In this document: positions 56,062-58,398 of the stretch, one piece after another
How the letters are laid out: every line of letters starts with the position of its first letter
Numbering within the stretch: position 1 is the stretch's first letter
NCBI RefSeq assembly: GCF_000455125.1
Contig: NZ_AUWR01000012.1
Location: 1-64,000 of the forward strand
Source of the DNA: Mycobacterium sp. UM_WGJ
GTDB taxonomy: Bacteria; Actinomycetota; Actinomycetes; Mycobacteriales; Mycobacteriaceae
Length of the DNA stretch: 64,000 nt
Direction of reading: 5' to 3'
Notes under the pieces: model-generated
Told to the model about the DNA's origin: nothing
Databases searched by the model: none
What the model saw: only the letters and a program-made list of their open reading frames with translations
Translations under genes and position numbers: made by a program

Positions 56062-56373
56062 ATGTCGGTGGTTGAGGCGATCTACCTGGTCGCGGCTGTG
56101 CTGTGGATTGTTGTGGTGGTGGCCGCGGCGTGCGTCGGAGGCCACTACCTGGTGAAGCTTCGTGCCAGGCGCCGCCAGGTGACCGGGCTGATCGACACCT
56201 TGCGGCTGTCCATCGAGCACGCCATCAGCCCGTACCGGGCAGTGGCCGCCGTCGGTGCCGCCGTTCTTCAGCGTGCGGTTGCCGGAGGCGGCGTCCTCGG
56301 GAGCGTCGCTCAGTTGATGATCTCGTCGAGCCCGTCAGCGCGCAGCGCGGCCAGCCGATCACGCCACTCCTGA
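56062..56373 (+). CDS. Small single-pass membrane protein candidate
   Basis: This 103-aa ORF starts at ATG 56062 with GGGGAGG upstream. It has one strong transmembrane helix (about residues 6-28) followed by a basic segment LRARRRQVTGL and an amphipathic stretch. The last 64 nt overlap the arr gene on the other strand and read as low-complexity Ser/Arg, so the natural end may have been lost or extended. No family is recognised. Hydrophobicity and ribosome site favour a real gene, overlap argues for caution. Confidence 0.5.
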   Translation: MSVVEAIYLVAAVLWIVVVVAAACVGGHYLVKLRARRRQVTGLIDTLRLSIEHAISPYRAVAAVGAAVLQRAVAGGGVLGSVAQLMISSSPSARSAASRSRHS

Positions 56374-56720
56374 AGTGCCTCGGGCGTCAGTCGCGGCCAG
56401 TCGATGATCTCTTCGGCGACGCGCAGCGGTGCACTGCTGCGATAGGAGCGGGTCGGGTTGCCGGGGAACTTCTTGTCGGTGACGTTGGGGTCGTTCTCGA
56501 ACGCGCCAGTGGGCTCCACGCGATACACCCGCGGTTCCCCGTGGCCGGCGGCGAGCTCGGCCGCTAGCCCGGCACCGCTGAGCAGCGCGGTGAAGTAGAT
56601 GTGGTTCATCACGAGCTCGGGCCGGTAGTTGGACCGGAAGCCCGCGCTGAGTAGGTCACCCACCATCAGTTGGGCCTTGGTGCCGTGAAAGAACGGGCCC
56701 GCTTCCTCGATCGCGTCCAT
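56310..56720 (-). CDS. arr: NAD+-dependent rifampin ADP-ribosyltransferase
   Basis: This 136-aa enzyme inactivates rifamycins by transferring ADP-ribose to the C23 hydroxyl. The catalytic His-Tyr-Asp triad is present at His12 (FHGTK), Tyr42 (NHIYFT) and Asp77 (ENDPNVTDKK), with the same 30 and 35 residue spacings as His19, Tyr49 and Asp84 of M. smegmatis Arr. The block PGNPTRSYR is strongly conserved. A TACCCT hexamer ends 8 nt before ATG 56720. It is divergent from a GNAT-nucleotidyltransferase gene, their starts being 52 nt apart. Intrinsic rifampin tolerance is predicted. Confidence 0.93.
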   Translation of the reverse strand: MDAIEEAGPFFHGTKAQLMVGDLLSAGFRSNYRPELVMNHIYFTALLSGAGLAAELAAGHGEPRVYRVEPTGAFENDPNVTDKKFPGNPTRSYRSSAPLRVAEEIIDWPRLTPEALQEWRDRLAALRADGLDEIIN

Positions 56721-56727
56721 CGGCTAC

Positions 56728-56733
56728 AGGGTA
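56728..56733 (-). promoter_or_regulatory. -10 hexamer TACCCT for arr
   Basis: On the minus strand TACCCT ends 8 nt before ATG 56720, giving a leaderless arr mRNA. Confidence 0.55.
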
Positions 56734-56758
56734 TCGACGCGTGGAGGCCCTCGATCGG

Positions 56759-56764
56759 TAATCT
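56759..56764 (+). promoter_or_regulatory. -10 hexamer TAATCT for the GNAT-AadA fusion
   Basis: TAATCT ends 8 nt before GTG 56772. Only 25 nt separate it from the arr hexamer, so the two promoters share their upstream region and any regulator there. Confidence 0.55.
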
Positions 56765-56771
56765 GACCGCG

Positions 56772-57983
56772 GTGCGGATTCGTGACTGCGTGGGGCCTGC
56801 CGAATATCCCCGGCTGGTGGCGATCTGGCGCAGCGCCGTCGACGCGACCCACCACTTTCTGGCTGATGCAGATCGCGCGGACATCGAGAGTCAACTGGCC
56901 GATGTCTACTTCCCGGCCGTTTGCCTCACCGTCGCTGAGATCGACGGAGACCCGGTGGGTTTCGCCGGCACGGCGGGGGAGCACCTGGAGATGTTGTTCG
57001 TCCACGCCGACGCTCGCGGCCACGGGGTCGGAAGCGCGCTACTCCAACACGTGATCGCCGAGCAGGGAATCCGCTTGGTGGACGTCAATGAGCAGAACGA
57101 GCAGGCGGTCGAGTTCTACGTTCGGCGCGGTTTTGTTGTCGCCGGCCGCAGTGAGCTTGATGAGGCGGGTCGGCCATATCCGTTGCTGCACATGGAGGCA
57201 CTGCTCACGCCGGTCCTGAGCTATCTGGACGAGGATCGGCCGGGAGATCTGGCCGGAGCCTATCTCTACGGGTCGGCGGCCGCGGCCGGGCTGCGGCCGG
57301 ACAGCGACGTCGATCTGCTGGTTCTCACACGTACGTCGCTGTCGGAGGCCGAGCGGGCGTCGCTGGTGGCAATTCTGTTGGGTGTGTCCGGGTGGAGCGG
57401 GCATGCCGCCCAATTCCCCGAGGTTGCCAACCGTCGGCCGTTGGAGCTGACCAGCCTCGTCGTGGCCGACGTTGATCCGTTGCCGCAGACACCCCGCCGC
57501 GACTTCCAATTCGGCGAATGGTTGCGCGCGGAGCTGCTGGACGGCCACGTCCCGACTGCCGTTCCCGATCCCGACGTGGTGGTGCTGCTGGCCACCGCCC
57601 AGAGCGCTCGCCGGGTGTTGCGCGGCCAGCCGCTCGAGGATCTGGTCGCGCCGGTGCCGCCCGAGCGGCTCCGGCGAGCCCAGCTCGCGTTGTTGCCCGA
57701 GCTCATGAACGACCCGGCGGGCGAGGAGAGGTTCTTCCTGCTGACCTTGGCTCGCATGCTGGTCACGATCGAGACCGGGCAGATCGTCGCCAAGGACATT
57801 GCCGCGCAACGGGTCGCACCGAGATTGACGGGACACGATCGTGCCCTGCTGGAGCTGGCCGGGCAGGATTATCTAGGCCTTGCCCAGGTGAACTGGCGCG
57901 ACCATTACGACCACGTAGTGGCGTTGATTCCAAAGCTGGTCGGCCTGATCCGACAGGCCGACGCCGTCGCGTCGGACGGTTAA
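56772..57983 (+). CDS. GNAT acetyltransferase fused to AadA-type aminoglycoside nucleotidyltransferase
   Basis: This 403-aa protein joins two enzyme domains. Residues 1-142 are a GNAT fold with the acetyl-CoA loop ARGHGVG (81-87) and the C-terminal NEQAVEFYVRRGF motif. Residues 147-403 match the ANT(3'')/AadA layout: YLYGSAAAAG then DSDVD (Gly167, Ser168, Asp179, Asp181 as ATP-magnesium ligands), RPLELT with Glu225 as candidate catalytic base, and the C-terminal helical DUF4111-like part. It may both acetylate and adenylylate a substrate, plausibly an aminoglycoside. GTG 56772 is set by the hexamer; the upstream frame overlaps arr. Substrate and activity are untested. Confidence 0.82.
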   Translation: MRIRDCVGPAEYPRLVAIWRSAVDATHHFLADADRADIESQLADVYFPAVCLTVAEIDGDPVGFAGTAGEHLEMLFVHADARGHGVGSALLQHVIAEQGIRLVDVNEQNEQAVEFYVRRGFVVAGRSELDEAGRPYPLLHMEALLTPVLSYLDEDRPGDLAGAYLYGSAAAAGLRPDSDVDLLVLTRTSLSEAERASLVAILLGVSGWSGHAAQFPEVANRRPLELTSLVVADVDPLPQTPRRDFQFGEWLRAELLDGHVPTAVPDPDVVVLLATAQSARRVLRGQPLEDLVAPVPPERLRRAQLALLPELMNDPAGEERFFLLTLARMLVTIETGQIVAKDIAAQRVAPRLTGHDRALLELAGQDYLGLAQVNWRDHYDHVVALIPKLVGLIRQADAVASDG

Positions 57984-58072
57984 ATCGCGATCCGCCACCA
58001 GGTTCGGCAGCCGCTGTTAGGCTCCGAAAAGGTGGGCAAAAAGTTGGCCCAACTGTCGCGATGGAGATGAAA

Positions 58073-58398
58073 ATGCGAGGTCAACGAATTGCCATTTTGG
58101 CGGGAGTGTTAGCTGGCGGTTCAATGGTGCTGGCCGGCCCGGCCTACGCCGATCCGCCGAGCGGTCGGTACCAGGTAACCGGGCAAGGGCTACAGGATGA
58201 TTTCTACTGGGAACTCAGCTCGTGCGGTTCGGACTGCCTGAACATTGCGCCATCCGGGCAACTGCACCGGCAAGGCAGGGAGTGGGCGGGCACCACCACC
58301 GGCGGTTGCCAGACCACTCTGGACGAGGCTCGCTGACCGGTAGTTATCAGTGCCCGATGCTTCCGCCGATTGCCATCACCCTGGTGAGTGCCGGCTGA
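58073..58398 (+). pseudogene. Frameshifted small secreted protein gene
   Basis: The open frame from ATG 58073 (ribosome site GGAG) codes for a signal peptide with AYA cleavage and a Cys-containing mature part with SSCGSDCLNI and GGCQTTLD, stopping at 58336. One frame over (-1), sequence that reads as the missing C-terminus (GSLTGSYQC, then ITLVSAG) runs to TGA 58398. The joint product would be about 108 aa, a size usual for such exported mycobacterial proteins. A single lost base near 58325 explains it. Strain-level sequencing error is the alternative. Confidence 0.65.

What the first reader, a model, noticed from the sequence alone, without database searches (positions are those of the whole stretch)
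56310..57983. Divergent drug-modification pair: Arr and a GNAT-AadA fusion
A complete rifampin ADP-ribosyltransferase with its full catalytic triad shares a 52-nt divergent start region with a two-domain protein joining a GNAT acetyltransferase to an AadA-type nucleotidyltransferase. Both halves of the fusion keep key motifs. A chromosomally encoded acetyltransferase-adenylyltransferase of this type is unusual, and its pairing with arr suggests a small intrinsic resistance locus.
Basis: partly seen in the sequence, partly recalled or inferred. Interest (0 to 1): 0.82.

Follow-up and report, generated by a model that had tools for sequence, protein, structure and literature searches.

The report
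Fused acetyltransferase and spectinomycin-type enzyme beside arr
A mycobacterium carries a rifampin-inactivating gene back to back with one protein that joins two enzymes, a protein-acetyltransferase-like half and a half related to spectinomycin-inactivating enzymes whose drug-binding spot has changed; some relatives have only one half or pieces of it.

Summary
In detail: a complete arr (56310-56720, -) faces, across 51 nt, a 403-aa GNAT-AadA fusion (56772-57983, +). The GNAT half is of the YjaB family (a lysine acetyltransferase in E. coli), not an aminoglycoside acetyltransferase. The AadA half is ANT(9)-like: ATP, Mg and catalytic-base residues are kept, streptomycin determinants are absent, and acceptor position 185, Asn in 40 of 40 stand-alone homologues, is Phe in 5 of 5 fusions and one remnant. 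The intact fusion was found in 5 genomes of one clade (Mycolicibacter). Of 18 loci of that clade read, 4 keep GNAT alone, 3 keep fragments and 6 show neither; short AadA-derived pieces in some suggest an old fusion, lost more than once. Both halves are under purifying selection (dN/dS about 0.2). Published MICs do not tie it to streptomycin: 4 in a carrier, >32 in a strain with a remnant. Most likely: a house GNAT joined to an ANT(9)-type AMP-transferase with an altered acceptor pocket; substrate unknown.

The parts
56310..56720 (-). arr, NAD(+)--rifampin ADP-ribosyltransferase, 136 aa
56721..56771 (.). 51-nt divergent intergenic region, 65% G+C
56728..56733 (-). TACCCT, -10-like hexamer ending 7 nt before the arr ATG (leaderless-type arrangement, inferred)
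   Evidence: same hexamer and spacing in 8 of 10 clade sequences by script, and by eye in a ninth, Davo, where the script started from a wrong coordinate; absent in M. icosiumassiliensis
56759..56764 (+). TAATCT, -10-like hexamer ending 7 nt before the GTG start of the fusion (leaderless-type arrangement, inferred)
   Evidence: TANNCT at the same spacing in 8 of 10 clade sequences; absent in M. icosiumassiliensis and, read by eye, in G340 (AAATCT)
56772..57209 (+). GNAT half of the fusion as analysed (residues 1-146), YjaB family; RGHGVG acetyl-CoA loop, Tyr aligned with catalytic Tyr117 of YjaB. The seam is probably at Met141
   Evidence: seam read by eye
57210..57983 (+). AadA half of the fusion as analysed (residues 147-403 and stop), ANT(9)-like nucleotidyltransferase with AadA_C domain

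Best explanation
The locus is an ordinary mycobacterial arr next to a clade-specific fusion gene. SHOWN: the fusion and where it was found; short pieces of it in relatives; purifying selection on both halves; kept ATP/Mg/base residues; the clade-wide change of acceptor-pocket positions 182 and 185. INFERRED: arr inactivates rifamycins by ADP-ribosylation. INFERRED: the GNAT half acetylates an amine, most likely protein lysines as YjaB does. INFERRED: the AadA half transfers AMP from Mg-ATP to a hydroxyl of an aminocyclitol-like acceptor; it does not act on streptomycin, and acts on spectinomycin weakly or not at all because the pocket has changed. The two activities seem separable, since an open GNAT frame without AadA stands in three branches of the clade.
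For: Family scores: GNAT half passes the YjaB model NF007807 (140 bits, cut-off 134); AadA half best matches ANT(9) (192.2 bits), below its cut-off of 340. Residues: Ser36, Ser46, Asp47, Asp49, Glu87, Trp112, Asp130, Arg192, Lys205 and Tyr231 kept in 5 of 5 fusions; Phe185 in 6 of 6 fusion-clade sequences (5 fusions, 1 remnant) against Asn in 40 of 40 stand-alone ones whose aligned piece reached the loop (43 in all; in 3 it did not); Glu182 in 6 of 6 against Asp 39, Glu 1. Trp173 and the 177-178 insertion, needed for streptomycin (PMC6065190), are absent. Mean dN/dS 0.18 (GNAT half) and 0.22 (AadA half), 10 pairs each; Arr 0.16 (15 pairs), YchF 0.04 (10 pairs). Pieces of the fusion in relatives: GNAT-only proteins of G078 (M. 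arupensis) and G420 end in GLIRQ, the C-terminal motif of the fusion; G073 has ALLAP after the GNAT end, where fusions have ALLTP or ALLAS and stand-alone ANT enzymes have their first residues; G340 keeps the first five codons and then the AadA C-domain in frame. Phenotypes: strain Davo (fusion) streptomycin MIC 4, rifampin >16 (PMC4513157); MYC017 (remnant only) streptomycin >32, rifampicin >16 (PMC10844392).
Against: No activity of any part was measured. The MIC comparison mixes laboratories, media and species, and the papers I opened gave no spectinomycin MIC in what I read. Glu182 also occurs in one stand-alone homologue. That the fusion is old and was lost rests on short pieces and on trees with some weak nodes; the longer flank matches (G073 to Davo, G174 to icosiumassiliensis) begin at or just past the stop and would be expected under gain as well as loss, and G174 has no clear AadA-derived piece. 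Spread by recombination between species could give a similar pattern. Six of 18 loci show no trace, including the deepest branch (G086, G101), so the fusion may have arisen after that branch. Repeated loss also fits a gene of little use.
Confidence: 0.55

Rival explanations
1. It is a true bifunctional drug-modifying enzyme: the AadA half adenylylates spectinomycin (perhaps other aminocyclitols) and the GNAT half acetylates an aminoglycoside, giving intrinsic resistance together with Arr.
For: Catalytic residues kept in both halves; position beside arr; purifying selection on both; nearest family model ANT(9), a family active on spectinomycin (PMC6065190).
Against: GNAT half is YjaB-type, not an AAC. 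AadA positions 182 and 185 changed in the whole fusion clade. Amikacin MIC <=2 and kanamycin 8 in carrier Davo. AadA half absent or incomplete in 13 of 18 loci of the clade.
Confidence: 0.2
2. The AadA half is a decaying passenger: an acquired resistance domain with a damaged acceptor pocket, carried along because it does not disturb the GNAT.
For: Pocket changes fixed in the clade; GNAT-only loci and fragments in relatives.
Against: All five intact copies keep an open frame and dN/dS about 0.22 in the AadA half, near the value of Arr; the ATP site is fully kept.
Confidence: 0.17

Closest known systems
ANT(9) / AadA ANT(3'')(9) aminoglycoside nucleotidyltransferases (6sxj, 6xxq; 4cs6, 7uy4)
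   Different: Fused to a GNAT; Phe at 185 and Glu at 182; no Trp173 nor 177-178 insertion; below the cut-off of every ANT model listed
E. coli YjaB lysine acetyltransferase (2kcw)
   Different: YjaB is a single domain; here it carries a C-terminal nucleotidyltransferase
Serratia ANT(3'')-Ii/AAC(6')-IId bifunctional enzyme
   Same: Adenylylation and acetylation domains in one protein (PMC9826615, one passage)
   Different: Plasmid-borne, opposite domain order as its name gives it, and its acetyltransferase is an AAC(6')
Mycobacterial Arr (2hw2; M. abscessus MAB_0591)
   Same: Full-length Arr with the three catalytic residues; rifamycin-inactivating role in M. abscessus (PMC8370238, passages)
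   Different: Nothing notable except its divergent partner

Membership tests
Arr (rifampin ADP-ribosyltransferase) | Family model above curated cut-off | tested here: met
   PF12120 154.3 bits (25); NF033144 157.7 bits (130)
Arr (rifampin ADP-ribosyltransferase) | Catalytic His, Tyr, Asp | tested here: met
   His12, Tyr42, Asp77 aligned with 2hw2 His19, Tyr49, Asp84 (roles recalled)
Arr (rifampin ADP-ribosyltransferase) | ADP-ribosylation of rifampin | not testable with these tools
   No assay; strains of the clade are rifampin-resistant in print
ANT(9) | NCBIfam model above cut-off | tested here: not met
   NF012212 192.2 bits, cut-off 340
ANT(9) | Mg/ATP residues and Glu87 base | tested here: met
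   5 of 5 fusions
ANT(9) | Trp112, Asp182 and His/Asn185 acceptor determinants (PMC6065190) | tested here: not met
   Trp112 kept in 5 of 5; Glu at 182 and Phe at 185 in 6 of 6 fusion-clade sequences
ANT(3'')(9) AadA (streptomycin) | Trp173 and two-residue insertion at 177-178 | tested here: not met
   Both absent in the alignments
Aminoglycoside acetyltransferase (AAC) | Match to an AAC family model above cut-off | tested here: not met
   Only AAC(3)-XI listed, 18 bits, cut-off 300
YjaB-type GNAT | NCBIfam NF007807 above cut-off and catalytic Tyr117 | tested here: met
   140 bits, cut-off 134; Tyr aligned
YjaB-type GNAT | Protein lysine acetylation | not testable with these tools
   Needs an assay
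ANT(3'')-Ii/AAC(6')-IId type bifunctional enzyme | ANT first, AAC(6') second | tested here: not met
   Order here is GNAT then ANT-like; reference order from its name in PMC9826615

The most novel reading that the evidence does not exclude
The fusion is a two-step modifier of one non-antibiotic acceptor: the YjaB-type half acetylates it and the repurposed ANT half, with its Phe185/Glu182 pocket, adenylylates it. A resistance domain would thus have been turned into a metabolic or regulatory AMP-transferase in Mycolicibacter.
Probability: 0.1. Interest if true: 0.72.

Novelty: new variant of a known kind. Interest (0 to 1): 0.45.

Why it matters
It shows a resistance-type nucleotidyltransferase joined to a YjaB-type acetyltransferase in a chromosome, kept under purifying selection in some species and missing or in pieces in others, with a clade-specific change in the drug pocket. 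By its family models such a gene would be taken for streptomycin/spectinomycin resistance; the residues and the published MICs argue against streptomycin. It offers a natural series (intact fusion, GNAT alone, remnant, nothing) in which to ask what the added domain does.

Tried and rejected
Streptomycin 3''-adenylylation: rejected on residues and MICs. GNAT as AAC: rejected on family models. 'GNAT alone is ancestral in the clade and AadA was added only in the window's subclade': set aside, not excluded. Against it: GLIRQ in G078 and G420, ALLAP in G073, and the AadA C-domain in G340. GLIRQ is five residues; among 57 loci L035-L110 with a PYP motif it follows in 1, L035 = M. arupensis. The flank matches were uneven: G073 matched only Davo (144, best of 100 shuffles 35) and scored within shuffles against the other four; G174 matched G069 (524) and icosiumassiliensis (503) but not G000, G130 or Davo; all begin at or near the stop, so they place the junction but do not tell gain from loss.

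Same fusion elsewhere: the search for related loci kept the best 80 of 341 relatives, 3 of them full-length. Of 62 ORFs with an AadA hit in the loci held, 9 also had a GNAT hit (phmmer with the window's GNAT half, E <= 1e-4; a very divergent GNAT would be missed); all 9 are copies of the same five genomes. AadA matches in 25 of 298 order genomes and 15 of 345 class genomes (window counted in both; samples, with only the best 7-8 candidates per genome scored), no other fused. No place covering 80% of the query among the 5000 best plasmid records (cap reached) or the 26 phage records that matched.

Rifampicin-associated element: I saw one passage on it and made no motif search. WhiB7 control was not tested. 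Phylogeny: the first rpoB tree took a wrong frame for G355; I dropped G355 and rebuilt with 18 taxa, choosing frames by similarity. G417 gave no rpoB match; G411, G072, Davo and icosiumassiliensis are not in the rpoB tree. In one search two of the ten spacer coordinates (Davo arr side, G340 fusion side) were wrong and I read those two by eye. The listings of three paper searches showed no paper on this fusion.

Full report
WHAT IS THERE. The window is a mycobacterial chromosome stretch on contig 12 of a 4.47-Mb, 116-contig assembly. arr lies at 56310-56720 on the minus strand (136 aa) and the fusion at 56772-57983 on the plus strand (403 aa, GTG start); 51 nt separate the start codons. Pfam finds Arr-ms in the first, and three GNAT models, two nucleotidyltransferase models and AadA_C in the second. 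A search of the own genome gave 1 match to the fusion at E <= 0.001. AlphaFold2 with a 71-row alignment gives mean pLDDT 91.9 and pTM 0.85; the last GNAT strand (138-142) runs into the first AadA helix (146-155) with a three-residue link. In 7 stand-alone ANT ORFs printed the distance from a possible start (Met in 6, Val in 1) to the YGS motif is the same 28 residues as from Met141 of the fusion (counted by eye), so the seam is probably at Met141.

WHAT EACH HALF IS. The GNAT half passes the NCBIfam YjaB model (140 bits, cut-off 134) and matches E. coli YjaB 2kcw (43-44% identity). YjaB acts as a protein lysine acetyltransferase when overexpressed in E. coli, and Tyr117 is needed (PMC6199490, passages); that Tyr is kept. 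The AadA half scores best with ANT(9) (192.2 bits), below the cut-off of 340. PMC6065190 (passages and section 10) proposes Glu87, Trp112, Asp182 and His/Asn185 for spectinomycin and, in addition, Trp173 and a 177-178 insertion for streptomycin; D182N raised the spectinomycin Kd from 2 to >30 uM. In my alignment the nucleotide-site residues and Trp112 are kept, Trp173 and the insertion are absent, position 182 is Glu and 185 is Phe in 6 of 6 fusion-clade sequences (5 fusions and the MYC017 remnant). Of 43 stand-alone sequences, the aligned piece reached the loop in 40: 40 of 40 have Asn185, 39 Asp182 and 1 Glu182. So this is a nucleotidyltransferase with a complete catalytic set and a changed acceptor pocket.

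DISTRIBUTION. Full-length matches: G000, G069 and G130 among 396 genus genomes, and Mycolicibacter icosiumassiliensis (L031), M. heraklionensis 1211594.5 (L032, same contig as G130) and M. heraklionensis Davo (L033) among the 80 loci kept from named genomes: five different genomes. I read 18 loci of the clade, recognised by arr or the GNAT with the same flanking genes: intact fusion 5; GNAT alone 4 (G073, G174, G078 = M. arupensis L035, G420); fragments 3 (G340, whose locus reads like that of MYC017, L046; G022; G226); nothing of the gene detected at the locus 6 (G086, G101, G396, G150, G399, G411). G072 has arr without GNAT but is more distant (YchF 90%) and was set aside. More distant mycobacteria such as G417, G443 and G161 have the GNAT near ychF, with no arr in the stretch read. 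arr alone is common: 205 of 396 genus genomes at E <= 1e-20.

HISTORY. The rpoB tree of 18 genomes puts G340 with G399 (100), next to G150/G396 (84; whole group 96), outside the group with the intact fusions; G086/G101 split off below these (87). A tree of rpoB plus six neighbour genes, 11 genomes, also puts G340 outside the rest of the clade (100). Signs that the fusion once stood where GNAT is now alone: GLIRQ, the end of the fusion, follows PYP in G078 and G420; G073 has ALLAP after the GNAT end, at the place of the first residues of ANT; G340 keeps the first five codons and then, in frame, the AadA C-domain. G174 shows no clear AadA piece. The 3' flanks of G073 and G174 match those of Davo (144, best of 100 shuffles 35) and icosiumassiliensis (503 against 39), starting at or just past the stop; this fixes the junction but fits gain as well as loss. 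G022 keeps about 30 nt of the GNAT start and G226 about 44 nt of its middle followed by the post-stop flank (scores above the best of 60 shuffles). Most likely reading: one old fusion, lost in part at least twice and probably more often. Recombination between species is a fair alternative. dN/dS over the five intact copies is 0.18 for the GNAT half and 0.22 for the AadA half (10 pairs each), against 0.16 for Arr (15 pairs) and 0.04 for YchF (10 pairs) (Nei-Gojobori, no error estimate).

ORIGIN OF THE AadA HALF. In a FastTree of the AadA set the fusions are sister (support 0.97) to Brevibacterium sediminis, B. senegalense, Corynebacterium kalidii and G276. In L036 and L041 the stand-alone aadA lies about 1.1 and 1.7 kb downstream of ychF, as the fusion lies near ychF; the L034 contig is too short to tell; in the 12 other stand-alone loci read with wider flanks (L204-L215) no ychF was found. 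In G276 an arr lies about 4.5 kb from aadA. These are leads.

EXPRESSION. TACCCT (arr side) and TAATCT (fusion side) each end 7 nt before the start codon. In ten clade sequences the arr-side hexamer is kept in 9 (8 by script, Davo by eye) and a TANNNT on the fusion side in 8. That such spacing marks leaderless mycobacterial transcripts is recalled knowledge. In G069 and Davo a SnoaL-like ORF of about 130 aa lies between arr and the fusion (the Pfam scan was of the G069 copy).

PHENOTYPES IN PRINT. Davo, which carries the intact fusion: rifampin >16, streptomycin 4, amikacin <=2, kanamycin 8 (PMC4513157, whole text). MYC017, with only the C-domain remnant: rifampicin >16, streptomycin >32, amikacin <=1 (PMC10844392, passages). 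One M. arupense isolate, of a species whose sequenced strain has GNAT alone: streptomycin >128, rifampicin 16 (PMC9887264, passages); another report calls streptomycin susceptibility of M. arupense variable (PMC4766891, passages). Methods differ, so this is only suggestive; but streptomycin resistance does not follow the fusion, and rifampin resistance fits arr being present in all 18 loci. Caution: Davo's own arr is irregular near its start and lacks an internal stretch of about 11 codons, so its rifampin resistance may have another cause.

COMPARISON AND VERDICT. The closest known bifunctional enzyme I found is Serratia ANT(3'')-Ii/AAC(6')-IId, with the opposite order and a true AAC (PMC9826615, one passage). 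The present protein is a combination of known families with an altered pocket: a new variant of a known kind. The arr half of the finding is ordinary. Interest is moderate: the patchy survival, the conserved pocket change and the apparent separability of the halves make it testable, but no activity is known.

Noticed in passing
L036:924-3786 and L041:245-3654: Stand-alone aadA genes of Brevibacterium sediminis and Corynebacterium kalidii, in the sister group of the fused AadA half, lie 1.1 and 1.7 kb downstream of ychF; the place may be an old landing site.
   Followed up: partly
   Followed up: no
L133:5737-6126 and L033 between arr and the fusion: A SnoaL-like ORF of about 130 aa sits between arr and the fusion in G069 and M. 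heraklionensis Davo, and in none of the eight other clade spacers compared.
   Followed up: partly
window 56062-56373 (+): Small ORF with an N-terminal hydrophobic stretch, no Pfam match, 79-96% identical in nine relatives, whose 3' end overlaps the 3' end of arr on the other strand.
   Followed up: partly
L033:2152-2505 (-): The arr of M. heraklionensis Davo is irregular near its start and lacks about 11 internal codons; intact copies exist in its relatives.
   Followed up: no
L018/L120 (G009) and L021 (G149): YjaB-type GNAT matched in two pieces in two other mycobacterial genomes, a hint that this gene also decays outside Mycolicibacter.
   Followed up: no
window 58063-58336 (+): Small secreted-looking protein directly downstream of the fusion, present at 52-66% identity at the same place in G130 and G078.
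   Followed up: no
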